Source: Telopea speciosissima (lineage: Eukaryota > Streptophyta > Magnoliopsida > Proteales > Proteaceae). From it: 64,000 nt of DNA. Shown here in pieces: positions 32,864 through 61,348 of the stretch (the stretch's first letter is position 1; each line of letters begins with the position of its first letter). The stretch covers positions 9,821,001-9,885,000 of the forward strand of contig NC_057924.1 in assembly GCF_018873765.1 (NCBI RefSeq), in the 5' to 3' direction. The notes under the pieces are model-generated. The model saw only the letters and a program-made list of their open reading frames with translations. It searched no databases and was not told where the DNA came from. Made by a program: the position numbers and the translations under genes.

Positions 32864-33139
32864 TCAATTGGGACCCCAACAACTCAAGTACATTACTTTT
32901 CTGAGAGATTCTTCTGATTGTTTCATCTTTTCATCGCTTGGAACCATCTTCTTAGTCATCGCCATTGAAGAAGATGAAGAGGGAAGTCTGTTGGCTTGAG
33001 AAAGAGATCCGCAATTGTTCTTGGCGTGTTGATGGAGGGATCTAATGGTGTAATTCCATCTACAAAACCCTTGATCCTTCAGTGCTTCTACAGTCCCAAC
33101 ACTTGCAGCCACGATCCAAGCTCTGCTCGTAGAACTCAT
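32864..33139 (-). CDS. Wound-induced protein WIP1 of the array (DUF3774)
   Basis: An intronless 91-aa protein from the ATG at 33139. N-terminal AWIVAASVGTVEALKDQG, then FCRWNYTIRSLHQHAKNN, a Ser-rich linker (LPSSSSSMAMTKK) and C-terminal SEESLRKVMYLSCWGPN, the complete WIP/DUF3774 layout with about the normal length. The open frame extends upstream of this ATG, but the array alignment and the TATA box at 33281 support the 33139 start. Arabidopsis relatives respond to wounding and low oxygen. No signal peptide is obvious; the N-terminal hydrophobic patch is short. First of six near-copies on this strand; a gypsy solo LTR lies 106 bp 3' of its stop. Confidence 0.93.
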   Translation of the reverse strand: MSSTSRAWIVAASVGTVEALKDQGFCRWNYTIRSLHQHAKNNCGSLSQANRLPSSSSSMAMTKKMVPSDEKMKQSEESLRKVMYLSCWGPN

Positions 33140-33280
33140 TTTCTGTTCTTTGCTACTGTTGTTGCTTCTCTTCGAATCTCGAGAATCAATTAGAGTTGAG
33201 AGTTTATGGATTGTGAACCTGTGAATAAGAAGTTTGAACTTTGAATTGAGCTTGAGAGAGTAAGGTAGACACACAAACCT

Positions 33281-33286
33281 TAAATA
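33281..33286 (-). promoter_or_regulatory. TATA box of WIP1
   Basis: TATTTA on the minus strand in the context TTATTTAAGG, about 145 bp upstream of the ATG. The same TATTTAAGG context recurs in WIP2, WIP3 and WIP5. Confidence 0.65.
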
Positions 33287-33333
33287 AGAAGAACGAGAGA
33301 GCGAGAAGATCACTGAAACTGTGTTAGTCATTA

Positions 33334-33360
33334 GAACCTGTGGGCTGTCTTGCCCAATGG
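33334..33360 (-). promoter_or_regulatory. WIP1 conserved promoter block (CCAAT + GCCCAC)
   Basis: The minus strand reads CCATTGGGC then AGACAGCCCACAGG. This is the most diverged copy of a block shared by WIP1-5. The CCAAT box (inverted) is intact, but the AAACCGCCCAC core of the other copies is altered. Confidence 0.55.
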
Positions 33361-35419
33361 TTTGGGAATTAGGAGAACCATTGCTTCGTCTCCACATAAC
33401 ATCCAGATTGTCTATCTTACCCATCCAGGTAGATGCACTGAACCAGATAATGAAGGGGTAAAATCGGTAATCCAAATTGAAAATACTATCAGTAACCTCT
33501 TGGTTTATCAGAAATTCAGATTTGAAGATAAAAGTATAAAACCAGTGAAGAGCCCATGGTCGAGGGACCATGCAAGTGGGATGACAAAACTTGGTGCCCA
33601 CCCACTTTCCCACTTTCCCACTTTCCCACTTCCTATGATATGCAAGAAATGCTTACATTTAATACTTTTTTAAACCCACTTTTAAGTTTTAACTTGGATC
33701 ATGGGAGATCAGTAATTGGAGTCGCTAAATACATAATCAGATTCATTGAAGGTACCATTCTTTATTAAATTCCTAGTCTTTTAAAAAATATTATCTGTCT
33801 CTATTAAAACTCTTCCCAAAGCAACCATTATTTTGAATATTTTGTGGAAAGATTCTGATACAACTATTTTTTCTTTTTAAGGGAAAACAACACTAACCGG
33901 TTGTGTAGCTCCTGCGTCCTGATCTACGAGCATGCAAAGAAATTGAAAATTGAAAATCTTATTCATATTGATGTTTGTGCACATGTCCTCATTGGCCCCA
34001 CACTAGTGCAAAGGCTACACACCTAGATAGCGATCTCTTACCTTTAAAGTAAAAGTATGGGTCTACTAATTGGTATCAAATAGGTGGAATCCATCAATTT
34101 GGATTAGAATCGAATCAATGGAATTGGACGAGCCCAATTTGGATGCCTACATATACAAAGTGGTTGATTTGTGCTGGATTTCTAGGGTTTAGGTTGATTC
34201 TTGACCAACTCTGGCTGAATCGAAATTGGTTGAGGCCAATCCATTGTCAAGTCCACATATTTGAATCTTGGGCAAAAGTTATGTGAGAGAGAGAGAGGAA
34301 GTTTGTAGAGTGTGAGGACTTCTTATGTATTAAATTGTTCCATTGCACCTTATTTGTGCGTTCATATATGCCATTTGTTCAAAGAACTTTTTTTCTTTTC
34401 TGTTTTTAGCTCTTTTAAATAGGAGAGAAGGTTCTCTTTGAGCAAGTGGCATAGAGGAGCACATCAACGAGAGGTGACAAAATAATACTATATATTAAAG
34501 GGCAACGAGATCATTTTATATGAAAAAAAAAAGATAAGTATAGAAAAGTGCTAACGTATCCTACCCCAACAACTCAGAGAAACCATGAGATATAGACATA
34601 TAGATAGAGATCAATAAGAGTATATAGATGCATTAAGGAAATATTGGTGAGGGGGGTCTCCACATTGTGAAATGTTTAGTTTGGTGGGGCTAGGGTAGAG
34701 TGCACTGTATATCTATCATACAATGTTCCAATAGTCATATGGATGGGCTCCTCCAAATGCAGATAATGATTCCAAAAAGGAATATCATGAGAACGGATAA
34801 GATTAATGGATAAAGGATTACGAAGTGGGGACAATGATGTGGCACCTTTTCTTCATGAGTTCGACATATAAGTGGGATTGGAATTTTTTTTCTTTCTTTA
34901 AATCTATCCTATTCAAGGGCCTATACGCCAACCACAAGTTAAGGGGGAAGGCTAAGACAAACCAATAATCTTACAACCAAGGGAAGGGATGAGAGGAGTG
35001 CCAACAAAGAAAATCGATCCTTGGAAAAAAAAACATCCTCTACAGGGTCCTAATCTGGCGGTACACTACAGTGCGGACCTAAGAGCTCGACAAGTGGAAG
35101 ATGCGATATCCAACGATATCGAGCTCGAGACGAAAGAAAAGGGGGGAAAAAAAACTGTCTTGCTTCAAGCTCGCATTGTTGGATGAAGCTTCTTCGATGT
35201 GTCAAGCTCTCAGGGCCGCACTGCAAAGGATTTTAAGCCCGGTCCCTTGATCTTAACATCTAACTGAGGTATCGAGAACAAAGAAAGATAAATTGGTAAA
35301 AAGATCTGAGTTTAGTTCCTCTGCATGTACATACAGGTGCATGTACACGTGAGAGGTAACCACCTGTCCGATTTTCACCATTTACAAGGAGAGGAGGGGT
35401 AATTATAGAAATAAATTAT

Positions 35420-35515
35420 AGAAGGTGCCATGTGTGTCATGTGGGGCCCGCTATGCACACATGGCACCTGCAGCATCACACGATGAGTACAGCAGCGCTG
35501 CAGTTACAGCAGCGG
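35420..35515. repeat. MITE-like hairpin, GTGGGGCCC family
   Basis: Inverted arms GGTGCCATGTGTG and CACACATGGCACC enclose TCATGTGGGGCCCGCTATG. It is followed by CAGCGCTGCAGTTACAGCAG. Related sequence occurs at 55010-55140 and 62593-62660. Absent from the same place in unit 2. Confidence 0.65.
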
Positions 35516-35817
35516 ATTAAAGTCCGGTGAGACCCATCCCTATTTTTGCTGTCGTTTAGCGCGGCTGGACACTCCAGCTCCCGCAACGGCTGGACAGAAT
35601 CCTTTTCCTTAGATATTGATATTTTAAAGGGCAAAATAGTCAGACCGGTAGAAATACCGATGGCGGTAACTAATTAGTCCAATTGTAGTGAAACAACGAG
35701 TTTCGACTTTCGACAAAAATAAAAACTGAAGGCGGTATTATTAGAATTTAGTGGTTTCGCCAAAACTTTGGGATCGGATAGTTGAGTAGTTCCGAACTTG
35801 CGGCAGGTTCGGATCAT

Positions 35818-35993
35818 TATCACCTACAATTCTGACACCCTCCAATTCCCTACAATCCCTCACATGCGAGTGAAATGACCACTTACCCACTGCCTTGGGA
35901 AGTGTGTCCAGGCAGTGGATAAGTGGTCATTTCAGCTTCCATGTGAGGGAATATTGTAGGGGAATTGGAGGGTGTCAGAATTGTAGGAGATAA
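35818..35993. repeat. Foldback MITE with long inverted ends
   Basis: Left CCTACAATTCTGACACCCTC and the right end as reverse complement are the same. Pairing continues inward (AATGACCACTTA, CACTGCCT), so nearly the entire 176 bp folds on itself. Unit 2 lacks it at the matching position (about 44940), so it inserted after the units duplicated. Confidence 0.85.
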
Positions 35994-36289
35994 AAATTCG
36001 TTTCAGAAGCTTCGCTTTAATTCCTCCTTCCTTCCTCTTTCTAGCCTAGACACATCGTCTCGCGTAATATCCGTCTTATCCCTGCCCGAGCAGGGTAAGG
36101 CGGACATTACGTACAACGATATGTCTGGGCCGCTATGGTCTCTACGGGCAGCACGCCGTAGAAGATCTGAATTGCTTTCTTACTTGCATAGAAAAAAGAT
36201 TAAACGATTCAAGAATCTTCCATAATAATTGAAAAAAGGAGAGAGTCTTTTAGCAAAAGAGAAAGCACAGAATCGTCAATTATCAATTT

Positions 36290-36500
36290 TAACCTTTATT
36301 TAAGCCCAATCAAACTTGTAACGAGAGTTAAGGGTTCGACAGCCTATTGACCAAGGGTTACAGTTTCTGGTTTGTTAAAAGTTTTACTAACAACAAGACA
36401 AAGGATTTAGTGATTGGAGACATTGGCATGTAATTTTCCGTTTCATTAATAAAGCCCTGGCTACAATAGTGAAAGTTTGATCCATTTTTGCAGATGACAC
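36290..36500 (+). pseudogene. Deletion scar of a LICWGPK gene (unit 1)
   Basis: The 5' side (CGTCAATTATCAATTTTAAC, TTTATTTAAGCCC, TCAAACTTGT) matches the promoter of the intact gene at 58247. The 3' side (TTCGACAGCC, GGGTTACAGTTTCTGG) matches its 3' region. The coding sequence between is missing, a loss of roughly 400 bp. The TATA-like TATTTAAG survives here. Confidence 0.7.
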
Positions 36501-36964: not shown

Positions 36965-39900
36965 TGATAGAATTTGAATTTCAAAGTATTTGAAATTGTG
37001 TTGTATTTCCCCTTGTCATCTCTATCGACTTTGGGGTTTGCTTTATAGCAGTTTGAGAATGCACAACGTTACAGTAGATCTGTTACAGGAGATAGAGTTT
37101 GAACTCATGTAGAACTTCCTAAGTTGTAGGGATAGTTCTTATCCTTATCTACTGGAACAACCCCAACGCCTCTTGACTGGTTCAATTGGATATTCAAATT
37201 TTGAATATTTGAATATTCCGTTACACACCCCCTCAAGCGAAATGGTCGTTGGGTCACATTGAGCTTGTCCCTTAGAGCTTTGAACCGTGGTCCAGGGAGG
37301 CCTTTTGTAAACAAATCTGCTACCTGATCACTGCTGGGCACGAAACGGACACAGAGACGATTGGAGGCCACTTGTTCTCTTACAAAGTGGTAGTCAATCT
37401 CTATGTGTTTAGTTCGTGCGTGAAATAATGGGTTGGCAGCCAAATAAGTGGCCCCAATATTATCACAATATAGCAGTGGTGCTTGGGCCGGAATATCAAG
37501 ATCTTGGAGCAGCTGACGTAGCCATAATAATTCTGCCGCCGCATTTGCCACACCTTTGTATTCCGACTCTGTAGATGACCTAGCCTCCGTGTGCTGCTTC
37601 TTGGAGCTCCAGGAGACCAGGTTGTCACCAAGGTAGACACAGTAGCCACTTGTCGACCGTCGATCGTATGGGCAGCCTGCCCAGTCCGCATCTGTATAGG
37701 CAATCAGCTGCAACGAATTGGACAGTTTGATTTGGATCCCCAATGCTAGTGTATCCTTTAGGTAGCGAAGTATCCTCTTCACGGCGGCCCAGTGTGTTAC
37801 AGTTGGGCTATGCATGAACTGGCATACTCTATTTACGGAGAACGCGATATCCGGACGAGTGAGTGTCAAATACTGCAGTGCCCCAACAATGCTCCTATAG
37901 AGAGTGGGATCATCAAAACACTTTTCCATATCACGATCAAGTGAGCCGGTTGAGCTTGGCGTAGGCATTGGTTTGGCCATATCCATGTTGGCCTTTTGAA
38001 GCAGATCCAAAATATACTTCATTTGGGATAGATGTAGGCCTTGAGAATCACGAAGAGCCTCAATCCCAAGGAAAAAACTCAATTCACCAAGGTCTTTAAT
38101 AGCAAATTCAGTGCCAAGGGTGGTGATGAGATCCTGGATCTGACTAGAGCTTGAGCCAGTGATTATGATGTCATCGACATAGACCAATAGATACATCATG
38201 GTTGACTTTGCCTTGTGGACAAAGAGAGCCGAGTCTGACCCTGCTGATTGAAAGCCAATGGACATGAGGAATGTGCCAAGTCTGTGATTCCAGGCCCTGG
38301 GTGCCTGTTTTAAACCGTATAGGGCACGTTTTAAGTGGCAAACATGATTGGGATAGTTGGGGTCGACAAAGCCCTGTGGTTGTGTCATATAGACATCTTC
38401 TTGGAGTGCGCCATTGAGAAAGGCATTTTGCACATCCAATTGCCGAAGTGGCCACCCCCTTGATACTGCGACAAACAGAACCGTCCTTATTGTAGTGGGC
38501 TTTACCACAGGGCTGAATGTATCAAAATAATCTAGCCCTTCTCTTTGATGAAAGCCCTTGGCTACGAGGCGCGCCTTATAGCGTGAGATGGACCCATCAG
38601 AATTCCTCTTGATTCGGTAAACCCACTTATTTCCCACCAAATTCATTGATGGTTGTGAAGGTACTAGTTGCCAGGTCCCATTTCTTAGAAGCGCATTGAA
38701 CTCTTCACTCATGGCCTCTCTCCATTTTTTACTTTTGCTAGCCTCAGTGAAGGAGGTGGGCTCCACTTTAGTAGGGTCTTTTTGGGTAAGGAGGGATTCA
38801 GGAATCGGGTAGCGAGTAGCCATCAAGTTTAGCCGTGAAATCGGCTTTGCAACTCCTGATTTTGAGCGGGTTACCATTGAGTGTTGCATCGATGGTGGGG
38901 CTACAGGAGCCAATGGAACAGTGGGTTGTGGTAGAGGCTCGGTTGGTGGACTTTGTGGAAGTGGAAGTGGGCCTTGAGGTGCTGGACTTAGTGGTTGCAT
39001 TGATTGAGCTTGGTTCGGCAGTGGTGGTATTAGGCCAATGGATAATGGTATTTGGTTAGTGGAAACAATGTTGTCATTTGTAATGACTAATGGTGAATGG
39101 GTGGGTGGGTTATTTGTGATTGAAGTGGAGTGTAGCAGAGTGGCCAATGGGAAACGCGCCTCATCAAAGGTCACATGGCGTGAGATATAAGTACGCCCCA
39201 CCGTAGGGTCAAAACACTTGTACCCTTTATGCGCATTACTGTATCCAAGAAACACACACTGCTTCGATCGAAACTCCAGTTTATGCTTGTTGAATGGCCG
39301 CAGCCAAGGATAACAAGCACAGCCGTATGTTCTTAATATTAGATAATCCGGCTCTTTGTTGAACAGTATTTCATATGGTGACTTTTCTTCCAACACTGGA
39401 GTAGGTAGTCTATTTATTAAATAGACTGCTGTTTCAAAAGCAGTCACCCAAAAAGTCATGGGAACAGATGCCCTTGCCATTAGAGTGAGGCCCATTTCAA
39501 CTATGTGCCGGTGCTTTCTTTCTGCTCTCCCATTTTGCTCTGATGTGTGCGGACATGAATATCGATGCACAATGCCATGCTGCCTAAAGTGCTTATCAAA
39601 AGACTGGTACTCTCTTGCTCCATCTGATTGAAAAACTTTGAGATTACAGTTGAAGAAATTTTGAACATATGCATTAAATTGTAGAAAAATGGGTAGAGCT
39701 TCAGATCGGGATACAAGTGGAAAAGTCCAACAATACCGGCTGAAATCATCAATAAATGAAATGTAATATTTAAACCCTTGCAATGAAGGAGAGGGTGCAG
39801 GTCCCCATATATCGGAGTGCACTAGTTCAAACGGAGCAGACGCTGTTGCTTTATTTAAGCCAAAAGGAAGTTTGTGAGCCTTTCCCAATTGACATGAACT

Positions 39901-41728
39901 GCAAACTGAAGAAGACATTGATGCTTGAAAAGGTAAAAGCGAGCGGTGTATTACTGACTTCATACACTTGGATGATGGATGGCCAAGTCGGTCATGCCAA
40001 ACCGACGTCGAAACTCGTTCACCAACATGAACGGTGGGCAGCAATGGTGGTGTGGTGGAAGCTGATGGGTGTGGAAGACGGTATAGCCCATCTTTAATCA
40101 TGCCTTGGAGTAGTCTGTTCCCCGTGCGTGGGTCCTTCACATAACAACACTTTGGGTGAAATTCCAAGATTACATTGTTATCTGCAGTAAACTTGCTGAC
40201 TGATAAGAGATTTTTTGTAATCTTAGGAACATGTAAGACATCATTAAGAGTAAAGTGCTGTAAAAGAGACTTAATATAAGAAATTCCAGTATTTTTAATA
40301 TGCAAACCTGCACCATTTCCAACTCGCACTTGATCAGATCCTGTATAAGGGGAACTAATATTTAGGTTGCCCAGGTCAGATGTAACATGATGCGTGGCAC
40401 CCGAATCGGGGTACCATGCTGAATCAAAGGACGCAGATGGTGTCGCCAGTAAAGCCTCTGATTGGGATGAGCCAGATGTTGGAGCAGTGGTGTGATAGTT
40501 GGGATTAAACCTATTATAACAGGTTGCTGCTGTGTGATTTGTTCTGTGACAAATCTGACATCCAGAACCAACAGGGTATTGCATTTGACTGGGCTGCTGG
40601 TTGTTACTACGGCCACCAGTGTAGTAAGACTTGCGGCCACCACGACGTCCCCCATTATTGCTGTAGTAGCCTCGGCCACGGGTGAGATTGTTGCTTGTGT
40701 TTTTGGTGGTGATGTTGGCCTCCACGGTGGGTAGATCAAGCTGAGAAGTACGCTGATCTTTCAATATCTCTTGACTTAGAAGCATACCTGTGAAGTCCTC
40801 CAATGCTAATGGTTCAATCCTGGTTGTAACCGATGTAGCAAAAGCCTCATAGTCTGGGCCTAGGCCTTTGAGAGTACTGAGAATAATATCTGAATCTGAA
40901 ACTGGGTTGGCGGCTGCAGCGAGGTTGTCGACCAAGCTTTTAATACGTTGAAGGTATTCCGCCATGGTGAGTGTTCCCTTCTTTAGTTGAAGGAGTTGAT
41001 ACTTCAGTTGCATTACGCGTGCCTGCGACTGAGACGCATAAGTGCGTTCAAGAATCTTCCAAGCAGCATGGGGGGATGTTGCGCCAATTATCTGACCAAG
41101 AGCGCTTTCAGTTAATGAAGAAATAATCCAACTTAGGATTATTTGATCCTGCCTTCTCCAGGTGAGATAGGCTGGATTGACTGTGGCTGGTTCGGTTGAG
41201 GAAGAGATAGGTGAAGGAGAGAGAGTTTGAGGTGGAGAAAGGTGGGCTCCATCTACATATCCATAGAGATCATAGGCATGCAGGAGTGGAACGAACTGAG
41301 ATTTCCATAGTAAGTAGTTCATACGATCCAGCTTTACTGGAAGAAGAGAGACAATATTGGTTGGGGAGATGGTGGTAGGCTGAGCATCAGTGGCTTGAGT
41401 AACAGTGGCTGAGTCACCGGAATTTGTCATTGTGATGAGAGACGTATGTCAAAGGCGAGTGATACCACGATAGAATTTGAATTTCAAAGTATTTGAAATT
41501 GTGTTGTATTTCCCCTTGTCATCTCTATCGACTTTGGGGTTTGCTTTATAGCAGTTTGAGAATGCACAACGTTACAGTAGATCTGTTACAGGAGATAGAG
41601 TTTGAACTCATGTAGAACTTCCTAAGTTGTAGGGATAGTTCTTATCCTTATCTACTGGAACAACCCCAACGCCTCTTGACTGGTTCAATTGGATATTCAA
41701 ATTTTGAATATTTGAATATTCCGTTACA
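36965..41728 (-). mobile_element. Ty1-copia retrotransposon, looks whole and very young
   Basis: A complete element of 4764 bp, probably Ale/Retrofit-type by its short LTRs, small size and gag style (lineage inferred). Terminal repeats lie at 36965-37225 and 41468-41728 (261 bp, near-identical by eye). The 5-bp target duplication AGAAA is at 36960-36964 and 41729-41733. The primer-binding site adjoins the right LTR and a G-rich polypurine tract adjoins the left LTR, as expected for a minus-strand element. It inserted in the 3' flank of WIP2 after the array formed. Confidence 0.96.
37105..41430 (-). CDS. Ty1-copia gag-pol polyprotein
   Basis: A single 1441-aa frame with, in order, gag, a CCHC zinc knuckle (CQICHRTNHTAATC, around residue 290), aspartic protease (WYPDSGATHHV), integrase zinc and core regions (WHDRLGHPSSKC), reverse transcriptase (LLVYVDDIIITGSS) and RNase H (YTDADWAGCP, SSTESEYKG). 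Copia order (integrase before reverse transcriptase) is clear. The last residues run into the 3' LTR. It is a mobile-element gene unrelated to the host genes around it. Confidence 0.96.
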   Translation of the reverse strand: MTNSGDSATVTQATDAQPTTISPTNIVSLLPVKLDRMNYLLWKSQFVPLLHAYDLYGYVDGAHLSPPQTLSPSPISSSTEPATVNPAYLTWRRQDQIILSWIISSLTESALGQIIGATSPHAAWKILERTYASQSQARVMQLKYQLLQLKKGTLTMAEYLQRIKSLVDNLAAAANPVSDSDIILSTLKGLGPDYEAFATSVTTRIEPLALEDFTGMLLSQEILKDQRTSQLDLPTVEANITTKNTSNNLTRGRGYYSNNGGRRGGRKSYYTGGRSNNQQPSQMQYPVGSGCQICHRTNHTAATCYNRFNPNYHTTAPTSGSSQSEALLATPSASFDSAWYPDSGATHHVTSDLGNLNISSPYTGSDQVRVGNGAGLHIKNTGISYIKSLLQHFTLNDVLHVPKITKNLLSVSKFTADNNVILEFHPKCCYVKDPRTGNRLLQGMIKDGLYRLPHPSASTTPPLLPTVHVGERVSTSVWHDRLGHPSSKCMKSVIHRSLLPFQASMSSSVCSSCQLGKAHKLPFGLNKATASAPFELVHSDIWGPAPSPSLQGFKYYISFIDDFSRYCWTFPLVSRSEALPIFLQFNAYVQNFFNCNLKVFQSDGAREYQSFDKHFRQHGIVHRYSCPHTSEQNGRAERKHRHIVEMGLTLMARASVPMTFWVTAFETAVYLINRLPTPVLEEKSPYEILFNKEPDYLILRTYGCACYPWLRPFNKHKLEFRSKQCVFLGYSNAHKGYKCFDPTVGRTYISRHVTFDEARFPLATLLHSTSITNNPPTHSPLVITNDNIVSTNQIPLSIGLIPPLPNQAQSMQPLSPAPQGPLPLPQSPPTEPLPQPTVPLAPVAPPSMQHSMVTRSKSGVAKPISRLNLMATRYPIPESLLTQKDPTKVEPTSFTEASKSKKWREAMSEEFNALLRNGTWQLVPSQPSMNLVGNKWVYRIKRNSDGSISRYKARLVAKGFHQREGLDYFDTFSPVVKPTTIRTVLFVAVSRGWPLRQLDVQNAFLNGALQEDVYMTQPQGFVDPNYPNHVCHLKRALYGLKQAPRAWNHRLGTFLMSIGFQSAGSDSALFVHKAKSTMMYLLVYVDDIIITGSSSSQIQDLITTLGTEFAIKDLGELSFFLGIEALRDSQGLHLSQMKYILDLLQKANMDMAKPMPTPSSTGSLDRDMEKCFDDPTLYRSIVGALQYLTLTRPDIAFSVNRVCQFMHSPTVTHWAAVKRILRYLKDTLALGIQIKLSNSLQLIAYTDADWAGCPYDRRSTSGYCVYLGDNLVSWSSKKQHTEARSSTESEYKGVANAAAELLWLRQLLQDLDIPAQAPLLYCDNIGATYLAANPLFHARTKHIEIDYHFVREQVASNRLCVRFVPSSDQVADLFTKGLPGPRFKALRDKLNVTQRPFRLRGCVTEYSNIQNLNIQLNQSRGVGVVPVDKDKNYPYNLGSST

Positions 41729-41885: not shown

Positions 41886-42164
41886 TCAATTGGGACCCCA
41901 ACAGCTCAAGTACATAACTTTTCTGAGAGATTCTTCTGATTGTTTCATCTTCTCATCGCTTGGAACCATCTTCTTAGTCATCGCCATTGAAGAAGAGGAA
42001 GAGGGAAGTCTGTTGGTTCGAGAAAGAGATCCGCAATTGTTCTTCGCGTGTTGATGGAGAGATCTAATGGTGTAATTCCATCTGCAAAACCCTCCTTGAT
42101 CCTTCAGTGCTTCTACAGCCCCAACGCTTGCAGCCACGATCCAAGCTCTGCTAGTAGAACTCAT
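41886..42164 (-). CDS. Wound-induced protein WIP2 of the array (DUF3774)
   Basis: An intronless 92-aa protein, nearly identical to WIP1. It has the same AWIVAASVGAVEALKDQG start region and SEESLRKVMYLSCWGPN end. One extra Gly (KDQGGFCRWNY) comes from a 3-base insertion, unique in the array. The copia element ends 157 bp from its stop codon. The promoter has the conserved block and TATA box, but a GA microsatellite separates them. Confidence 0.93.
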   Translation of the reverse strand: MSSTSRAWIVAASVGAVEALKDQGGFCRWNYTIRSLHQHAKNNCGSLSRTNRLPSSSSSMAMTKKMVPSDEKMKQSEESLRKVMYLSCWGPN

Positions 42165-42416: not shown

Positions 42417-45400
42417 TTTGGGAACTAGGATAGCTGATCAAATTTGGATCCTCTACTGTCGAGTTGCCCGACAGGACCATGCTGCCCAGTCACAGAGTTG
42501 TGCGCAATGCCCACCTTACCTCTGCCCAAACACCTTGCCCGATAAAAAAAGGGGCAAAATCGGTAATCCAAATCGAGAATACTATCAGTGACCAGATTGT
42601 TTATCAGAAATTAAGAATTGAAGATAAAAATATAAAACCACTGAAGAGCCCATAGTCCACGGACCATGCAAGTGGGATGACAAAGAAATGCTTACATTTA
42701 ATACTTTTTTAAACCCACTTTTAAGTTTTAACTTGGATTATGGGAGATCAATAATTGGAGTAGCTAAATACATAATCAGATTCATTGAAGGTACCTTTCT
42801 TTATTATAATCCCAGTCTTTTAAAAAATATAATCTGTCTCTATTAATACCCTTCCCAAAGCAACCATTATTTTGAATATGTTGGGAAAAGATTCTGTTCC
42901 AATTATCTTTTCTTTAATGGAAAAAGAATGCTAATTGAATGTGTAGCTCCTGCGTCCTAACCTAAGAGCACATAAAGATATTGAAAATCGAAAATCTTAT
43001 TCATATTGATGCTTGTGCACATGTCCTCACTGGCCCCACATTAGTGCAAAGGCTACATGCCTAGATAGCGATCTCTTACCCTTAAAGTAAAAGCACGGTT
43101 CTACGAATTGGTACCAAATAGGTGGAATCCATCAATTCGGATTAGAATCGAATCAATGGAATTAGTCGAGCCCAATCTGGATTCCTACATATACAAAGCG
43201 GTTGATCTGTGCTGGATTTCTAGGGTTTAGGTCGATTCTCGACCAACTTTGCTTGAATCGAAATTGGTTGAGGTCAATCCATTGTCAAGTCCACATATTT
43301 GAATCTTGGGCAAAAGTTATTAGAGCGAACATTTACAAAATGAGAGAGGGAGAGAGAGAGAGAGGAGGAAGTTTGTAGAGTGTGAGGACTTCCTATGTAT
43401 TAAATTGTTCCATTGCACCTTATTTATGCGTTCATATATGCCATTTGCTCAAAGAACCTTTTCTTCTTTTTGTTTTTAGCTCTTTTAGATAGGAGAAACG
43501 GTTCTCTCTGAACAAGTGGCATAGAAGAGCACATCAACAAGAGGTGACAAAATAATGCTGTATATTAGAGGGGCAATGAGGTCATTTTATATGAAAAAAA
43601 AAGAGGAGATGAGTATAGAATGCTAACGTATCCTACCCCAACAACTCACAAAATCCTTTCCCCTATGAGATATAGACATATAGATAGAGAAGGACAAGGG
43701 TATGTAGATGCGTTAAGAAAATATTGGTGAGGGGGGTCTCCACATTGTGAAATGTTTAGATTGGTGGGGGTAGAGTAGAGTGCACTTTTTATCTATCATA
43801 TTATGTCCCATATGGATTTTGATGGGCTCCTCCAAATGCAGATAATGACTCCAAAAAGGAATATCATGAGAATGGATAAAGGATTACGAAGTGGGGACAA
43901 TGACGTGGCATCGTGTCTTCATGAGTTCGACATATAAGTGGGATTAGATTTTTTTTCTTTAAATCTATCCAATTCAAGGGCCTATAGGCCAACTGCAAGG
44001 TAAGGGGGAAGGTTAAGACAAGCTAATACTCTTACAACTAGGGGAAGGGATGAGAAGGGTGCCAACCAAGAAAGCCGGTCTTTGGGAAAAAACATCCTCC
44101 ACAAGGCCCTAATCTGGCGGTACATTATAGTGCGGACATGAGAGCTCGACACGTGGAAGATGCGATATCCAATGATATCGAGCTCGAGATGAAAGAAAAG
44201 GGGAAAAGTGCCTTGCATCGAACTCGTACCGTTGGATGAAGCTTCTTCCACGTGTCGATCTCTCAAGACTGCACTGCAAAGGATTTTAATCCCGGTCCCT
44301 TGATCTTAACATCTAACTGAGGTATCGAGAACAAGGAAAGATAAATTGATAAAAAGATCTGGGTTCGATTCCTTTGCATGTACGTACAGGTGCATGTACA
44401 TGTGAGAGGTAACCATATGTCCGATTTTTACCATTCACAAGGAGAAGAGGGGTAATTATGGAAACAAATTGTATGGGTGGTTGACTCTCAAATGTACATT
44501 CACCAATCCATTCTCAAAAGCGACCTGGCTCCTGTCCAATCGTGGTGGGAACTGGATGGCCCAGCACTTGAAAACAACCCCAAAAAAAAGAGTGATCATT
44601 TCACATGTGGGCTCAGGTGGGACCCATCCCTATTTTTGTTATCATATAGTACGGCTAGACGCTCCAGCTCCCGCCACGGCTCGACAAAATCCTTTTCCTT
44701 AAATATTGATATTTTGAAAGGTAAAATAATCAAACCGGAAAAAGTACCGATGGCGGTACGAAATAAGTCCAATTGTAGTGAAATTGTAAAACAGCGAGTT
44801 CCACAAAAAGAAAACTGGAGGCGGTATTATTATTGGAGGAATTAGTGGTTTCGCCAAAACTTGGGATTGGTAGTATTTTTTTTTTTTTTTGGTAAAGTTG
44901 GGATTGGGCTGTTGAGTAGTTCCGAACTTGCGGCAGGTTCCCATGGTTTTAGTTTAATTTTTTTTATTCCGTCCCAGTATCAGAAGCTTCTCTTCAATTC
45001 CTCATTCCGCCCTCTTTCTTACTTGCATAGGAAAATGATTAAACCACTCAAGAATCTTCCATAATAATTGGAAAAAAAAATAGAATCTTTTATCAAAAAT
45101 AGAAAGCACAGAATCGTCAATTATTGATTTTAGCGAGAATTGTGTCTTAAATTCTTAATGGTTCCACAGCCTATAGACCAAGTGTTACAGTTTCTGGTTT
45201 GTTAAAAGTAATGCTGACAACAAGATAAGAATTTAGTGATTGGAGACAATTGGCATTTAATTTTCCGTTTCATTAGTGAAACCCTGCCAGTACTTGAGAA
45301 AGTTTGATCCATTTTTGCAGATGACACCTGAGTTGGGTGTTTTTTTTTTTGTAAAATAAATGTAGGACTTCAGGTTCAGCAAGCAAATTTCAAGCACAAA

Positions 45401-45849: not shown

Positions 45850-46119
45850 TCAATTGGGACCCCAACAGGTCAAGTACATAACTTTTCTGAGAGATTCTTC
45901 TGATTGCTTCATCTTTTCATCACTCAGAACCACCTTCTTAGACATCGCCATTGCAGAAGAGGGAAATCTGTTGGTTTGAGAAAGAGAACCGTAGTTGTTC
46001 TTGGCGTGTTGATGGAGGGATCTGAAGGTGTAATTCCATCTACAAAACCCTTGATCCTTCAGTGCTTCCACAACCCCAACACTTGCAGCCACAATCCAAG
46101 CTCTGCTTGTAGAACTCAT
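45850..46119 (-). CDS. Wound-induced protein WIP3 of the array (DUF3774)
   Basis: An intronless 89-aa protein with the same layout. It has VGVVEALKDQG, NNYGSLSQTNRFPSS, a shortened Ser linker and the end SEESLRKVMYLTCWGPN (Thr in place of the usual Ser before CWGPN). The TATA box (46328) and promoter block (46388) are intact. About 30 bp of its 5' leader is duplicated (TACTATTGTTGCTTCTCTTT at about 46139 and 46178), which pushes the TATA box further from the ATG. Confidence 0.92.
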   Translation of the reverse strand: MSSTSRAWIVAASVGVVEALKDQGFCRWNYTFRSLHQHAKNNYGSLSQTNRFPSSAMAMSKKVVLSDEKMKQSEESLRKVMYLTCWGPN

Positions 46120-48098: not shown

Positions 48099-48317
48099 AT
48101 GACTGGCAATGCAAGGATTTGCAAATTCGAGTCAGCCTTCAAAGCAATGCAGAGAAGCAATCTAACAGACAAATCCAACAAAATTAGGCGGTTTTCCTCC
48201 GGAGGCAAAATCCAACAAGAGATATCTAAGAATAGCAGCAGCGATGAGACGAAGGGGAGACGAGAAAAAGTGAAGACAGAGGCTCTCCTGCACTTAATCT
48301 GCTGGGGTCCCAAGTAA
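48099..48317 (+). CDS. Small CWGP-ending protein, LICWGPK family copy 1
   Basis: An intronless 72-aa protein from the only in-frame ATG (48099): MTGNARICKFESAFKAMQRS, then a basic Ser/Lys-rich middle (NKIRRFSSGG) and a C-terminal helix-like segment TEALLHLICWGPK. I do not recognise the family by name. Its last residues (L-x-L-x-CWGP) mirror the WIP C-terminus (YLSCWGPN), so it may be a distant DUF3774 relative. No signal peptide or membrane segment. It converges with WIP4, whose stop is 460 bp away. Three aligned copies and conserved ends argue that it is a real gene. Confidence 0.78.
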   Translation: MTGNARICKFESAFKAMQRSNLTDKSNKIRRFSSGGKIQQEISKNSSSDETKGRREKVKTEALLHLICWGPK

Positions 48318-48776
48318 AAATTCGGTGTTCTGCTTATAGAATTTGTTCGATGTGTTTAGAAAGGAATTTCTGTTTAAACAAAAATTTTAGTAACGAGTGT
48401 TGTACAAAAGCATTCCACCTCCCACCATTGGATCGAAGCTCCAATAAATCCGAAGAGCCTTCCATCTCTGTAATTATACAGAACTCAGGTAATTTAAAAA
48501 AAAAAAATAAAACTACAGTGATCTTGGGTGGAATCCTATGTACAGAATCCTTTATCTTTAAGTTCTACAATTGGTCTTGTATCTGGAACTAATTGGGAGA
48601 TTTTGATCGAGCAAATCATAAATGGAGTAGAAAAGAAACAAATAATTGAAATGATGTAAGATCTTTTTACTTTGTCTTCAAGAATCAAATCAATGTTCTC
48701 TCAATTAGTATTTACAGAATCGACGAAATAGAAGTAATACAGCTCTGGAGTCTGGAGTGGAGAGATTTGGAGCGCC

Positions 48777-49055
48777 TCAATTGGGACCCCAACAACTCAA
48801 GTACATAACTTTTCTGAGAGATTCTTCCGATTGCTTCATTTTTTCATCGCTCGGAACCACCTTCGTAGACATCGTTATTGTAGAAGAGGAAGAAGGGGGA
48901 AATCTGTTGGCTTGAGAAAGAGATCCGCAATTGTTTCTGGCGTGTTGATGGAGGGATCTGAAGGTGTAATTCCATCTACAGAACCCTTGATCCTTCAGTG
49001 CTTCTACAGCCCCAACGCTTGCAGCCACGATCCAAGCTCTGCTCGTAGAACTCAT
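48777..49055 (-). CDS. Wound-induced protein WIP4 of the array (DUF3774)
   Basis: A 92-aa intronless protein: AWIVAASVGAVEALKDQG, FCRWNYTFRSLHQHARNN, linker FPPSSSSTITMSTKV, end SEESLRKVMYLSCWGPN. All family-diagnostic blocks are present, so probably functional. Promoter: TATTTATA box (49214-49221) and conserved block (49255-49280). Convergent with the LICWGPK copy at 48099. Confidence 0.93.
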   Translation of the reverse strand: MSSTSRAWIVAASVGAVEALKDQGFCRWNYTFRSLHQHARNNCGSLSQANRFPPSSSSTITMSTKVVPSDEKMKQSEESLRKVMYLSCWGPN

Positions 49056-49832: not shown

Positions 49833-50626
49833 AGACCCACTTTTATTTTACCAAAAAAAAAGGAGAAAGAATATTAACCAGTGCACGCCCAAACACAGGC
49901 CGACGCATCCCCTTGGAAAGGCAGAAAGTTCCAAGGGTGCATTAGTATTTTCGTGTTGAGCGTGTCTGAGTGCAGGTACACACCCAAATACAACACCAGA
50001 TAACGTTCCTTTTTCCCAAAAAATAAAAGACCCACTTTAAACTTTTAACCAGATTATGGGAGGTCACTCAGGGTGTCAAGAAACAAGAATTAGATCGGTG
50101 AATTCGCAGATTCGGATCGAACTTTCACTATTCCTAATTGTTACTGTTTGAATCACAATTGAATCGATCGAGTGAGTAAATTCAGTCATTATCTTTGTAA
50201 TTCACCATAAATCAGACCGATTCATAGGCCGATTCTTGATTCCCAATTCCTGAGCTGATTCTATATTTACCGCAAAATATCTTTAAGAAAACTTAATGGT
50301 TATCAAAATCTTTTTTTAATTCAATGTTCGAGCCCCAAAATGATAACTAAATGTCTTAATACTCATTAGTATTTAGTGATAATAATTAAAAAATAATTGA
50401 TAATCCTTAGTTTTTCTTTGTAATTCTATTTGTACCACTAAAAATTTGGTCACTGACTAGCCAACACATGTCAAGATCCAAAAGCAAATTCATAAATATC
50501 ACAATTCAAAAGCCAATATCTCACATAGGTGTTTGGACGAGACAGACATTAATCATTTGTTATTGAAAAATGGGAACGAACTTCCATTGTCTTCTTTCAG
50601 TTTTTTCCCTCCTAAGATCTTATATT
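49833..50626. other. Spacer upstream of LICWGPK copy 2
   Basis: AT-rich, with GATTC-rich words (50090-50260). No promoter similarity to the other LICWGPK copies was found, and no gene. Confidence 0.5.
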
Positions 50627-50857
50627 ATGACCTGGAATCTTGTACATAACTTTTTTGTTTGCAAAATCGATTCTTCCTTCAAAGCAATGCAGAGAAGCAA
50701 TTTGTCGGAGTCTGCCAAGTCCAACCAAATTAGGAGCTTCTCCGGAGACTTGAGCAAACAGGAGATATCTACGAATAGCCGCGACGAGATGAAGAGGAGA
50801 CGAGAAAAAGAGAAGGCCGAGATTCTCCTGAATTTAATCTGTTGGGGTCCCAAGTAA
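50627..50857 (+). CDS. LICWGPK family copy 2, with altered N-terminus
   Basis: From KIDSSFKAMQRSNL onward it aligns with copies 1 and 3 and ends EILLNLICWGPK. The first residues differ: the usual GSSRICKFES is replaced by MTWNLVHNFFVCKIDS, so similarity begins inside the coding sequence. The ATG at 50627 gives 76 aa; an earlier ATG at 50570 gives 95 aa. Since the promoter-side homology is also missing, the copy was probably duplicated without its 5' end. It may be a pseudogene, or expressed from a new promoter. Confidence 0.6.
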   Translation: MTWNLVHNFFVCKIDSSFKAMQRSNLSESAKSNQIRSFSGDLSKQEISTNSRDEMKRRREKEKAEILLNLICWGPK

Positions 50858-53245: not shown

Positions 53246-53397
53246 TCTCTTTGAAAGATATTAGTGATAGTTTATATTTGCTTCACATAAATAATGAATT
53301 CGTACTATCGCTTGGCAGTGGATGAATCCTTCCTTCTTAGGGGTAGATACAGAAGAACTCAGACAATTTAGATCCATAGTCTATTTCAAGTATTGGT

Positions 53398-53500
53398 AAC
53401 GGTGTAATCCCATCTACAGAATCCTTGATCTTTCAGTGCTTGCAACGCTGGGACGCTTGCTATCACGATTCAACCACTGCGCGTCGAACATTTGGGGTCT
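53398..53500 (-). pseudogene. Truncated WIP copy (5' half only)
   Basis: The plus strand shows GGTGTAATCCCATCTACAGA, CCTTGATCTTTCAGTGCTT and CTTGCTATCACGATTC, matching the complement of the WIP region from about codon 1 to codon 32. The ATG region is mutated (CGTCGAACATTT in place of GTAGAACTCATTT) and the second half, including CWGPN, is gone. A dead relic next to WIP5. Confidence 0.78.
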
Positions 53501-53830: not shown

Positions 53831-54109
53831 TCAATTAGGACCCCAACAGCTCAAGTACATAACTTTTCTGAGAGATTCTTCCGATTGCTTCATCTTTTCA
53901 TCACTCGGAATCACCTTATTAGACATCGCCATTGCAGAAGAGGAAGAAGAGGGAAATCTGTTGGCTTGAGATAGAGATCTGCAATTGTTCTTGGCGTGTT
54001 GATGGAGAGATCTGAAGGCATAATTCCATCTACAGAACCCTTGATCCTTCAGTGCTTCGACAGCCCCAACGCTTGCAGCCACGATCCAAGCTCTGCTCGT
54101 CGAACTCAT
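53831..54109 (-). CDS. Wound-induced protein WIP5 of the array (DUF3774)
   Basis: A 92-aa intronless protein from the ATG at 54109; a longer frame to 54193 runs into the leader. Layout AWIVAASVGAVEALKDQG, FCRWNYAFRSLHQHAKNN, linker SSSSSAMAMSNKV, end SEESLRKVMYLSCWGPN. All conserved blocks are intact. TATTTAAGG at 54232-54239 and promoter block at 54292-54317. Paired (across a LINE and a solo LTR) with LICWGPK copy 2. Confidence 0.93.
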   Translation of the reverse strand: MSSTSRAWIVAASVGAVEALKDQGFCRWNYAFRSLHQHAKNNCRSLSQANRFPSSSSSAMAMSNKVIPSDEKMKQSEESLRKVMYLSCWGPN

Positions 54110-55147: not shown

Positions 55148-55265
55148 CGGCATAGGTTGCACCCAGGCACATGGGGTGGGCAAAATGACCTGACTGCCCT
55201 TGGATGATCCAAACCTCGCCCATGTCCCACCCCATGTGTCTGGGCACAGCCTGCGCCCAGATGCA
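55148..55265. repeat. MITE, GCAGGCTGTGCC family, copy 3
   Basis: Inverted arms TAGGTTGCACCCAGGCACAT and ATGTGTCTGGGCACAGCC. The same family as copies at 46.6 and 53.1 kb, and directly adjacent to the previous MITE. Confidence 0.7.
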
Positions 55266-57009: not shown

Positions 57010-57044
57010 TAGCGGCCATAGAGCGATATTCGGTCTCAACCACT

Positions 57045-57571: not shown

Positions 57572-57947
57572 ACTATGATGTCAATTGAAGAATGAACGAG
57601 AGTGCTTTGTTTCTTGGACTTCCAAGAAAGAGGATTCCCACCAAAAAAAAAAGTAATAATATTGCTAATAACAAAACACGACGTACAGTGGGTCAGGCAG
57701 CCCATTTGGAGAAAGTAGTGCCAGTAGAGAGCTTTGTGCAGAAACAAGAAAACTTTAGATAATCAATGTTTTAAGGGTTGAAACAGTTTGATAATATTTG
57801 ACAGAATCGATATCTGACCGTCTGATGAAGCCACCGATTCGTGCATAATTGTGCCATCCAGTGAGGAGACAGCGAATTCCTTTTTTTTATTTTTTGTTAA
57901 AAAGATGACAGCGAATTCGAATAAAAGAAAACTAGAGGCGGTATGAT

Positions 57948-58246
57948 TGGAGGAGTTGGTGGTTTCGCCAAAACTTGGATTAGGAAAACCGAATCCCAAG
58001 TTCCGAACTTGAGGTAGACTCCCATAGTTTTTATATTTTATTCCTTTCTCTTCTTGCATACGATTCATGAAACTTCCTTAATAAATATTGAAAAAATAAA
58101 ATCGTCAATTATCGATTTTAACCTCTATTTAAGCCCTGTCAAACTTGTCACTGGATATCAGTAAGCTTTCCTTTAATTGAAGATTCATTCGGCAAATAGT
58201 TCTTCACCCTAATCTCCCGTTTCAAAGAAATCACAAAAAACGAAAG
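57948..58246 (+). promoter_or_regulatory. Promoter and leader of LICWGPK copy 3
   Basis: Shares GTGGTTTCGCCAAAACTT, TTCCGAACTTG, CGTCAATTATCGATTTTAAC and CTCTATTTAAGCCC with units 1 and 2. TATTTAAG (58132-58139) is the likely TATA box, about 110 bp from the ATG. It is conserved across copies in which the gene itself was lost. Confidence 0.6.
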
Positions 58247-58468
58247 ATGAGTGGCAGCAGTTCACGGATTTGCAAATTCGAGTCCGCCTTCAAAACAATG
58301 CAGAGAAGCAATTTGGCGGCGGCTGACAAGTCCAACCAAATTAGGCGTTTCTCCAGAGGCGTGAACGAACAAGAGATATCTAAGAATAGCAGCGAAGAGA
58401 TGAAGAGGAGACGAGAAAAAGAGAAGGTAGAGACTCTCCTGCACTTAATCTGCTGGGGTCCCAAGTAA
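58247..58468 (+). CDS. LICWGPK family copy 3
   Basis: A 73-aa intronless protein: MSGSSSRICKFESAFKTMQR, SNLAAADKSNQIRRFSRG, a charged KRRREKEKVE segment and the end TLLHLICWGPK. It has the best-preserved context of the three: shared promoter, normal N-terminus and shared 3' region. Function unknown. The Lys/Arg-rich centre plus conserved C-terminus suggests a short protein that binds a partner through its C-terminal peptide (inference). Convergent with WIP6, 2.6 kb away. Confidence 0.8.
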   Translation: MSGSSSRICKFESAFKTMQRSNLAAADKSNQIRRFSRGVNEQEISKNSSEEMKRRREKEKVETLLHLICWGPK

Positions 58469-59080: not shown

Positions 59081-59579
59081 TGTTGCGTCCACAAACCGTT
59101 GATGGATCCCTCTCGGGTTAAACCTGCAAAAGGGAGTCAGATAATTAAGGGAGAGTCGGTCTTCTCCAGCGGGTACTCTCCGATGCCTTAAGTCTCTGAT
59201 TGCAGCAGATAAGTTGCTAGAATTCAAGATGATCGTTGTGAGTATAGTGTGGGCTGTAAGTAGAGGCAGTGATAGAGATTTCCGCAATAGTAAATCTTTC
59301 ATCCCTAATAGGAGATCTTGTCGTAGAATCCTTTTGAGAAAGTGTTTCCCTCTTTGGTAGGAGTCCATTCATATTAGGAGTTTCCACACTGCTGTTCAAC
59401 AGCCATGATAAATGATTGCAATATATTAGGAATTGAGATATATATGCTGCCCGTTACATGAGGATCTTATCCTCTAATGACTTGGTTTCCCGATCCTAGT
59501 TGATCGGGTGTCATGTGGGCTTGACCCGATGAGCTTATCCATCAGACCTAGCATTGATTGGCCATAAGTAGGTATATCA
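59081..59579 (-). mobile_element. Ty3-gypsy-type solo LTR, third copy, fossil
   Basis: On the minus strand it runs TGATATACC to GACGCAACA (499 bp), with GGCATCGGAGAGT and TTTTGCAGG near the end as in the LTRs at 32 and 52 kb. It is flanked by a perfect AAACT duplication (59076-59080, 59580-59584). Solo, no internal domains. Confidence 0.8.
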
Positions 59580-59687
59580 AAACTAAAGAACAAAAGTTGC
59601 GTCTCTTTTATAATGGTTCTAGTGCCCTTTAGATCAGTTTGAAGGGTTGTTGTTTCAGTAAATATAGCCCATGCTTTTCTTTTATGG

Positions 59688-59888
59688 ATGACCATATCTA
59701 GAGAGATAAGACCATGGACAGCGTGATGGCATAGAAATCATAGTGTGAATGAAGAAAGACAGAAAGACATGACCATATCTAGAGAGATAAGACCATGATA
59801 GAAAAAGACACAAAAAGGGTCTATTGTACAAGGAAAAACAGCAAAAGGGCTAACTTTTCATGACCATATTTAGAGAGATATGACCATG
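59688..59888. repeat. Three spaced copies of a 29-bp motif
   Basis: Copies at 59688-59716, 59769-59797 and 59860-59888, each starting ATGACCATAT and ending GACCATG around AGAGAGATA. The first two are identical; the third has two changes. Spacers differ (about 52 and 62 bp). Each copy is loosely palindromic (ATGACCAT / GACCATG). Confidence 0.9.
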
Positions 59889-59944
59889 GGAAGCAAGATC
59901 AATGTTACTATCATCCATAGGGATGTGATAATACCCATTTGCAT

Positions 59945-60135
59945 CTAATTAGCTTTACGCCTTGAGGTGGATCTTCAAAAGTCCAGAAGTGGTTGGAGTT
60001 CATAGAGTTCATTTCAGAGCGTATAGCTTCCAATCATTTAGTTGAATCAACATCCTTTATAGCCTTAGAGTAAATATAGGGATCTGTGTCAAAAACATCG
60101 GACACCATGTGAAACTCTTCCACTTTTTAATCTTT
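59945..60135 (-). mobile_element. Ty1-copia reverse-transcriptase fragment, fossil
   Basis: The minus strand translates to EAIRSEMNSMNSNHFWTFED and PPQGVKL, the start of the copia reverse-transcriptase region. A short isolated relic from a different copia lineage than the one at 37 kb. Confidence 0.6.
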
Positions 60136-61060
60136 TTCAATATAAGTGTTCTACCAATTTGAACTAAAGACCCATCAAGTACTCAATGAATTAATACAAC
60201 AAATTGAACCAAATAATATTCTCCATTTTTTTTTTGAATTAATTTGAAATGAATGAATTTCAACTGTTACACCAAAAAAAATCACTCAACGAAACTATGG
60301 AAAGAGAAAGCGTTTTTACATTCATGTCTCACATAATTCAGCTATTTAATTGAAAGCAAATAAAACCGTCTCTCTTCAATAAAATTTAAAAAAGAAAAAA
60401 AAAATCTTAAATGTTTTACCTTTAATCACTCGGCAGAGTCGGGTAAAACATCCCAATATTGGAAGCTCCAAGAAATCCGAAGAAACTTGCATCTTTGTAA
60501 GGATACAAGACTCAGGTAATTTAGATCCAAAGTCAATTTCAAGTATTGGTAACTGAACCAGTACAAAAAGGCGGATGATTAGAATAGATTCTTGGTCAGA
60601 AACTGTTTATCAAAACGAAAATGGAGACCAAATACAGGGAGGCCCTTAGCATATAGTAAATTTTCTCCCTGCTTCTAGATCCAGGATTTTTGAGCTTGAT
60701 GAACCACCGTTCCTCTTAAGATCGCAGATTAAGATAAGAAATTAGAGTAAGAATTAACAACTTGGTCCAAACCTGTATGAAACAATTAGGATTTATGCTA
60801 GAAGAAACACAAATAAACTTAAAAAAAGGGCAAGACAAGATAAGGTATGTAACAAAACAAAGCTTGTATATTTCATCTCATTCCACAAACAATTTGGAAT
60901 ATTTTTGTATTTACAATTCTGGAAACTTTCTACTCAAAACCCGTCCATCGATCCATCGGGACCTGTATTTCTACTAGGGTTTACGATCCGATACTCATCA
61001 AGGAATCCCTGGTCGAAAGAAGAAAGAGAAAAAAAAAAAGGGGGTTTAATAGTATTTATT
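60136..61060. other. Spacer 3' of WIP6
   Basis: AT-rich. AAGCTCCAAGAAATCCGAAG (about 60468) and the following 90 bp resemble 48430-48500 and 53340-53400, so part of the duplicated module. No gene was supported. Confidence 0.5.
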
Positions 61061-61348
61061 TCAGTTGGGACCCCAACAGCTGAGGTACATAACTTTCCTG
61101 AGAGACTCCTCCGATTGCTTCAAGTTCTCGTCACCAACCTTCTTAGCCGTTTTCACCATTGAAGTCGTCGCCGCCGGAGAAGAAGAAGAAGAAGCCTTTT
61201 TAGCCTGGGAGAAGGATCTCATATTGCCCTTGGCGTGCTGATGCAGCGACCTCAAGACATAATTCCATCTACAGATACCTTGATCTTTCAATACCTCCAC
61301 TGCTCCAACGCTCGCAGCCACGATCCAAGCTCTGCTTACCGAACTCAT
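61061..61348 (-). CDS. Wound-induced protein WIP6 (DUF3774), most diverged array member
   Basis: A 95-aa intronless protein from the ATG at 61348; a longer frame upstream is a Tyr/His run from a TAATGG repeat in the leader. AWIVAASVGAVEVLKDQG, ICRWNYVLRSLHQHAKGN, a long Ser/Ala linker (KKASSSSSPAATTSMVK), end SEESLRKVMYLSCWGPN. It differs from WIP1-5 across the linker and flanks, so it is an older paralogue, perhaps near the founder of the array. TATA candidate at 61458-61463. A GTGGGGCG element near 61494-61503 may correspond to the promoter block of the others. Confidence 0.93.
   Translation of the reverse strand: MSSVSRAWIVAASVGAVEVLKDQGICRWNYVLRSLHQHAKGNMRSFSQAKKASSSSSPAATTSMVKTAKKVGDENLKQSEESLRKVMYLSCWGPN

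What the first reader, a model, noticed from the sequence alone, without database searches (positions are those of the whole stretch)
32864..61348. Array of convergent small-gene pairs: WIP (CWGPN) facing a second family ending LICWGPK
Six - strand WIP genes and three + strand LICWGPK genes (plus two deletion scars) alternate in the order LICWGPK then WIP, each pair pointing inward. The two families differ over most of their length yet both end in a Leu-rich helix plus CWGP. Repeated pairing suggests that the duplicated unit was the pair, not the single gene, and that the shared terminal CWGP may be a common functional tag. I know of no description of such a paired array.
Basis: partly seen in the sequence, partly recalled or inferred. 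Interest (0 to 1): 0.85.

Follow-up and report, generated by a model that had tools for sequence, protein, structure and literature searches.

The report
Plant wound-induced gene tandem array
A stretch of plant chromosome holds a cluster of copied small wound-response genes of two related types facing opposite ways; it looks like ordinary local gene copying within one known family, not a new kind of paired system.

Summary
In detail: six minus-strand WIP genes (W1-W6), three plus-strand LICWGPK genes (L1-L3) and two L-less scars lie at the stated places.

(1) The LICWGPK proteins are probably not a second family. They match the WIP family Pfam PF12609 (DUF3774): L3 above the cut-off (33.1 vs 27.3 bits), L2 and L1 just below (25.8, 23.8). 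The match of L to W rests on the last ~15 residues.

(2) A segment with one W and one L was duplicated, but the inward-facing pair was not the unit: L3 is close to L1 and L2 (dS 0.30, 0.18), as W3-W5 are to each other (0.20-0.26), while W6, the inward neighbour of L3, is far from W4 and W5 (1.36, 1.02). A head-to-head W-L unit fits better.

(3) L genes look weakly constrained (pooled dN/dS 0.44, 0.21-0.92).

Hypoxia-element-like sites lie upstream of four of six W and no L. Likely meaning: dosage expansion of a known stress-induced family.

The parts
25938..26213 (+). M0: third type of DUF3774 gene, ends YLSCWGPN; links the W and L types
   Evidence: Pfam PF12609 55.3 bits, cut-off 27.3 (scanned from 25941); tblastn L2-M0 7e-9, W2-M0 1e-10
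29791..29906 (-). remnant of a W 3' flank with no W coding sequence next to it (a lost W copy)
   Evidence: self-comparison, 76-91% to the 3' flanks of W1-W5; alignment
32864..33139 (-). W1, WIP gene
   Evidence: DUF3774 122.3 bits, scanned in the longer ORF 32867-33571; coordinates
36322..36353 (+). scar 1: flanks of L3 present, L gene absent
36966..41728 (-). Copia LTR retrotransposon inserted in the W1-W2 interval, 260-nt terminal repeats identical
   Evidence: repeat D7; Pfam RVT_2, rve, gag
41886..42164 (-). W2, WIP gene
   Evidence: DUF3774 124.1 bits
45132..45153 (+). scar 2: flanks of L3 present, L gene absent
   Evidence: left match weak
45850..46119 (-). W3, WIP gene
   Evidence: DUF3774 123.8 bits
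46406..46417 (+). HRPE-like site upstream of W3, one mismatch
48099..48317 (+). L1, LICWGPK gene
   Evidence: DUF3774 23.8 bits, below the cut-off of 27.3
48435..48496 (.). spacer piece shared with 60462-60523 (L3-W6 interval)
   Evidence: alignment
48527..48566 (-). short W pseudogene piece between L1 and W4
48777..49055 (-). W4, WIP gene
   Evidence: DUF3774 126 bits
49255..49266 (-). HRPE-like site upstream of W4, one mismatch; opposite orientation to those of W3, W5 and W6, so not the same site
50627..50857 (+). L2, LICWGPK gene; start uncertain (ATG 50627 or 50570), likeness to L1 and L3 begins only at 50658
   Evidence: DUF3774 25.8 bits for 50654-50854, below the cut-off
53357..53400 (.). 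spacer piece shared with 60510-60553 (L3-W6 interval)
   Evidence: alignment
53398..53487 (-). W pseudogene piece with a stop, 5' part only, between L2 and W5
53831..54109 (-). W5, WIP gene
   Evidence: DUF3774 129.3 bits
54310..54321 (+). HRPE-like site upstream of W5, one mismatch
58247..58468 (+). L3, LICWGPK gene
   Evidence: DUF3774 33.1 bits, above the cut-off of 27.3
60462..60553 (.). spacer piece shared with the L1-W4 and L2-W5 intervals
61061..61348 (-). W6, WIP gene of an older lineage
   Evidence: DUF3774 122.7 bits; dS 1.0-2.0 to W1-W5
61521..61532 (+). exact HRPE match upstream of W6, the only exact match in the window
   Evidence: consensus from a passage of PMC11660084

Best explanation
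This is a plant tandem array of one known small-protein family, DUF3774 (wound-induced proteins, WIPs). Shown by sequence: nine open genes of two divergent types on opposite strands, a tenth of a third type beside them, two scars, pseudogene pieces and an inserted Copia element. Inferred: a chromosome segment carrying one W gene and one L gene head to head (W leftward, L rightward) was repeatedly duplicated, probably by unequal crossing-over; W6 belongs to an older split; L was lost from two neighbouring units. Inferred function: the W copies raise the dose of a wound- or low-oxygen-induced small protein, plausibly through the group VII ERF factors that bind HRPE sites; the L copies are faster-changing relatives whose upstream regions share nothing detectable with each other or with W, so probably not driven together with the W genes. 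The Leu-rich C-terminal helix and CWGP end is the conserved working part of the family, perhaps a docking end, rather than a tag joining two families.
For: All six W and M0 pass the DUF3774 cut-off, L3 passes, L1 and L2 come close. Full-length L1, L2 and L3 each beat all 300 of their shuffles against a W profile; an L profile scores M0 above all 300 shuffles even without the last 15 residues (11.7 vs best 9.9). dS: L1-L3 0.30, L2-L3 0.18, L1-L2 0.50; W3-W5 0.26, W4-W5 0.20, W3-W4 0.24; but W4-W6 1.36 and W5-W6 1.02, reached by the matching L pair in 0 of 1000 bootstraps. The W1-scar, W2-scar and W5-L3 spacers share pieces (36271-36322 with 58100-58151 at 90%; 44791-44864 with 57908-57978 at 85%; 35709-35806 with 57916-58017 at 74%). 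HRPE-like sites: 5 in the window with up to one mismatch (1.48 expected; 2 of 100 shuffles reach 5), 4 of them upstream of W3, W4, W5, W6. W dN/dS 0.08-0.26 in 15 of 15 pairs. Literature passages: four WIP family members among up-regulated hypoxia core genes of Brachypodium (PMC10218231); AT4G10265/AT4G10270 named WIP3/WIP4 (PMC7490348) and listed in a hypoxia meta-analysis table (PMC9317734).
Against: The L-W likeness lies in the last ~15 residues; without them 0 of 3 L, and not M0 either, match DUF3774, and L scores against W fall among the shuffles. The W3-L1 and W4-L2 spacers share no piece near L with the other head-to-head spacers, so the unit rests on dS and on three of five intervals. 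Spacer pieces are shared among the L1-W4, L2-W5 and L3-W6 intervals, so the duplicated segment reached beyond L and its ends are unknown. Gene conversion could distort dS; the genes are short. The HRPE-like sites are in paralogues, W1 and W2 have none, that of W4 is in the other orientation, and under a recalled consensus L3 had a 10-of-11 site as good as that of W6. Pairwise upstream comparison of W6 with W1-W5 is at chance in four of five pairs and weak in the fifth (10 of 300, and elsewhere than the HRPE site). No expression data.
Confidence: 0.68

Rival explanations
1. One reading: the inward-facing L-W pair is a functional module of two families with a common CWGP tag, and was copied as a pair.
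For: L-W order repeated three times; spacer pieces shared in all three L-W intervals; CWGP invariant in all 10 proteins; L-W likeness confined to the C-terminus.
Against: L3 passes the DUF3774 cut-off; M0 links the types; W6 is much older than the L3 split; inward gaps vary from 459 to 2973 bp; no likeness found between L upstream regions, or between L and W3, W5, W6 upstream regions beyond one weak case (L3-W3, 20 of 300).
Confidence: 0.12
2. The L genes are decaying copies with no function; open frames survive by recency.
For: L2 lacks the start region shared by L1 and L3; L2-L3 dN/dS 0.79 (0.32-3.01) and L1-L3 0.36 (0.13-1.10) do not exclude 1; two units have lost L.
Against: Pooled dN/dS 0.44 (0.21-0.92); gaps in the DNA alignment of the coding part are 6, 3 and 3 nt while 3'-flank gaps include 1, 2, 4 and 7; simulated neutral copies leave all three frames open in at most 0.056 of cases, under rates that I chose; the LICWGPK end is identical in all three.
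Confidence: 0.15
3. W and L are unrelated and converged on a CWGP C-terminus.
For: Only the last ~15 residues match between L and W; the match of M0 to DUF3774 also needs them.
Against: The L profile finds M0 even without the last 15 residues, 0 of 300 shuffles as high; full-length M0 is DUF3774 at 55.3 bits; the genes are neighbours.
Confidence: 0.07

Closest known systems
DUF3774 / wound-induced polypeptides (WIP), Pfam PF12609
   Same: All six W, M0 and L3 pass the family cut-off; CWGP at the C-terminus of all ten
   Different: L1 and L2 fall just below the cut-off; L proteins are 72-76 aa against 89-95 for W and lack the N-terminal AWIVAASVG..EALKDQG part
Arabidopsis WIP3/WIP4 (AT4G10265, AT4G10270)
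   Same: Names and wounding category from PMC7490348 (passage); adjacent locus numbers suggest a small tandem pair (inference)
   Different: No Arabidopsis sequence was compared here; an opposite-strand L partner there was not looked for
Brachypodium WIR/WIP hypoxia core genes
   Same: Same named family, four members more expressed in the submergence-tolerant ecotype (PMC10218231, passages)
   Different: Sequences and positions not compared

Membership tests
DUF3774 (W genes) | Match to PF12609 above the curated score | tested here: met
   6 of 6, 122-129 bits vs 27.3
DUF3774 (M0) | Match to PF12609 above the curated score | tested here: met
   55.3 bits; no match once the last 15 residues are removed
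DUF3774 (L genes) | Match to PF12609 above the curated score | tested here: inconclusive
   1 of 3 met (L3 33.1); L2 25.8 and L1 23.8 miss 27.3
DUF3774 (L genes) | Likeness beyond the C-terminal 15 residues | tested here: inconclusive
   Not found against Pfam (0 of 3) or W; found between the L profile and M0, 0 of 300 shuffles as high
Wound- or hypoxia-induced expression | Induction of transcript | not testable with these tools
   No RNA data; HRPE-like sites upstream of 4 of 6 W, 0 of 3 L
Co-duplicated inward L-W pair | Matching divergence of L and its inward W | tested here: not met
   L1-L3 0.30 vs W4-W6 1.36; L2-L3 0.18 vs W5-W6 1.02; 0 of 1000 bootstraps reversed either. L1-L2 0.50 vs W4-W5 0.20, the third inward comparison, was not bootstrapped against each other

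The most novel reading that the evidence does not exclude
L is a distinct, still functional subclass of DUF3774 kept next to W in a head-to-head unit through repeated duplication, the two proteins acting as partners or competitors through the same C-terminal helix and CWGP end.
Probability: 0.12. Interest if true: 0.5.

Novelty: new member of a known kind. Interest (0 to 1): 0.3.

Why it matters
It documents a local expansion of a poorly understood stress-induced plant family and points to a short, divergent member class (L) that the Pfam cut-off partly misses. The CWGP end, invariant across W, M0 and L, narrows the search for what the family binds.

Tried and rejected
Own-genome search: no genome is held for this window, so copies elsewhere in the genome and synteny could not be examined. 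Search for L3 in viral contigs and for W4 in bacterial and archaeal genome contigs: no relatives, as expected for a plant gene. Structure prediction gave low confidence: W4 mean pLDDT 52.1, L3 64.1, pTM 0.23 and 0.30, helices only, the best part the C-terminal helix of L3 (ten-residue blocks of 87 and 93); no fold search was made. A first HRPE scan with a consensus recalled from memory was uninformative: 768 of 2000 random 600-bp stretches had a best score of 9 or 10 of 11, and L3 scored 10 like W6; it was replaced by the consensus printed in PMC11660084. A common upstream block of W6 and W1-W5, which the multiple alignment seemed to show, was not upheld by pairwise tests. Paper searches (9 of 10 used) showed no title or abstract start describing a W-L array; the six papers naming DUF3774 were not opened; of the 65 papers holding the letters CWGP only 40 were listed; the one genome-wide WIP survey seen cited (soybean, Agronomy 2025, seen only as a reference in PMC12825991) is not held and may describe clusters. 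Of nine papers opened I saw passages only (one search found none of the terms). Whether the two scars are one deletion later duplicated or two deletions was not settled: the W1-W2 and W2-W3 intervals are duplicates but the break-points differ. Whether the W pseudogene pieces belong to the W6 lineage was not settled: 53398-53487 is 74-79% like W1, W2, W4 and W5, 89% like W3 over 44 bases, and 75% like W6 over 76 bases. The tblastn listing was cut in the middle, and one search showed 20 of 31 repeat families, so values there are those seen.
Full report
What is there. The window is plant-like DNA (38.6% G+C) with a Copia element and an exon of a thylakoid formation gene. Both L-less scars exist: around 36.3 and 45.1 kb sequence that flanks L3 on both sides is present and the gene is not, the left match of the second being weak. 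This is beyond chance: the W genes score 122-129 bits against PF12609, and W1-W5 repeat with flanks at 75-88% identity, with W6 alike over the coding part only at 71-74%.

A tenth gene, M0, lies on the plus strand at 25938-26213 and matches DUF3774 at 55.3 bits. L2 finds it at E 7e-9, L3 at 3e-8 and L1 at 1e-4, while L against the W genes gives about 2e-4 to 0.1 in the part of the listing seen, so for L1 the difference is slight; W2 finds M0 at 1e-10. There are W pseudogene pieces between L1 and W4 and between L2 and W5, a lost W at 29.8 kb, and a Copia element with identical 260-nt ends in the W1-W2 interval.

One family or two. L3 passes the DUF3774 cut-off; L2 and L1 miss it by 1.5 and 3.5 bits; the matches run over profile positions 16-80. 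All three full-length L beat all 300 of their own shuffles against a W profile. But with the last 15 residues removed, 0 of 3 L match any Pfam family, M0 no longer matches DUF3774 either, and L scores against W fall within the shuffles (30, 55 and 53 of 300 as high for L1, L2, L3). Direct profile comparison of L with W aligns 15 columns, probability 75.9. The link is M0: without its last 15 residues it still scores 11.7 against the L profile, 0 of 300 shuffles as high (best 9.9), though against the W profile it does not stand out as clearly (10 of 300 as high). I conclude that common descent is likely, with the C-terminal helix the part preserved; it is not proven for the N-terminal part. Seven columns are invariant in all ten proteins: Met1, one Cys, and Leu, Cys, Trp, Gly, Pro at the end.

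What was duplicated. In an alternating tandem array the phase is arbitrary, so divergence must decide. Using codons from the conserved Cys on, L1-L3 dS is 0.30 (0.11-0.62), L2-L3 0.18 (0.05-0.38), L1-L2 0.50 (0.24-1.03); over the whole frames it is 0.30, 0.31 and 0.59. For the W on the 5' side of each L (W3, W4, W5) dS is 0.20-0.26, and the L-minus-W intervals include zero in three of three comparisons. For the W on the 3' side (W4, W5, W6), W4-W6 is 1.36 (0.83-3.24) and W5-W6 1.02 (0.61-2.36); in 0 of 1000 bootstraps did the L distance reach these. So L3 and W6 were not copied together with L1-W4 or L2-W5, unless gene conversion has reset the L genes. The W5-L3 spacer shares pieces with both scar intervals, which fits a head-to-head W-L unit. 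Against a simple unit: the W3-L1 and W4-L2 spacers share no piece near L with those, and spacer pieces on the L-W side are also shared among the three inward intervals, so the segment extended some way past L and its ends are unknown.

Are the L genes alive. Pooled dN/dS is 0.44 (0.21-0.92; 1.25% of 2000 bootstraps at or above 1). By pair it is 0.37 (L1-L2), 0.36 (L1-L3) and 0.79 (L2-L3), and only L1-L2 excludes 1. In the plain DNA alignment the coding gaps are 6, 3 and 3 nt (the codon alignment gives multiples of three by construction); the 3' flanks have gaps of 1, 2, 3, 4, 6 and 7 nt. A neutral simulation with 10% substitutions per copy keeps all three frames open with probability 0.056 without indels and 0.0014 or 0.0001 with indel rates of 1 or 2% per site, rates that I chose, copies taken as independent. 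W genes are under stronger constraint: dN/dS 0.08-0.26 in 15 of 15 pairs. So L is probably coding but loosely held.

Regulation. With the HRPE consensus printed in PMC11660084 (GCCVCYGGTTTY; passage) the window has five matches with up to one mismatch where 1.48 are expected (2 of 100 shuffles reach five). The only exact match is upstream of W6; three one-mismatch matches are upstream of W3, W4 and W5, that of W4 in the other orientation; the fifth is at 17142, far from the array. W1, W2, M0 and the three L have none. The W sites are in paralogues and count for less than four independent hits. With a different, recalled consensus L3 had a 10-of-11 site, but so did 95 of 2000 random stretches. 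Upstream regions (400 bp) of L1, L2 and L3 show no likeness to each other (62 to 119 of 300 shuffles as high); of nine L-W comparisons (W3, W5 and W6 only) the best was L3-W3, 20 of 300.

How it most likely works. Shown: array anatomy and, for W, M0 and L3, the family match. From literature passages: four WIP members are among up-regulated hypoxia core genes in Brachypodium (PMC10218231); AT4G10265 and AT4G10270 are WIP3 and WIP4 in a wounding category (PMC7490348) and appear in a hypoxia meta-analysis table (PMC9317734); [quoted passage not shown] tomato DC3000 in Arabidopsis' was seen only as a reference. Inferred: more W copies give more of a stress-induced small protein; L copies drift with other upstream regions; the C-terminal helix with CWGP is the working end. 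Structure models are too weak to add more than helix content.

Verdict. A real tandem array of a known family, with an uncommon but explicable mixture of two divergent types on opposite strands. The claim of two families joined by a tag, copied as inward pairs, is not upheld. No such array appeared in the listings of nine paper searches, but those searches are narrow and the one family-wide survey seen cited is not held.

Noticed in passing
36966-41728: Copia element with a long open frame (1441 aa) and identical 260-nt terminal repeats, so probably a recent insertion.
   Followed up: partly
22449-22856: Exon matching thylakoid formation protein PF11264 (131.1 bits), a useful anchor for synteny. 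An open stretch at 14877-15200 reminded me of a plant diacylglycerol kinase (recalled; no Pfam match).
   Followed up: partly
30022-30287 and 31069-31333: Inverted repeat, 83% alike over 269 aligned bases, between the lost W remnant and W1; possibly a transposon.
   Followed up: no
63241-63777: Reverse-transcriptase-like domain (PF13456, 52.9 bits) beyond the right end of the array.
   Followed up: no
50567-50657: L2 has an upstream stretch, unlike L1 and L3, in frame with its coding part; its true start is unclear.
   Followed up: partly
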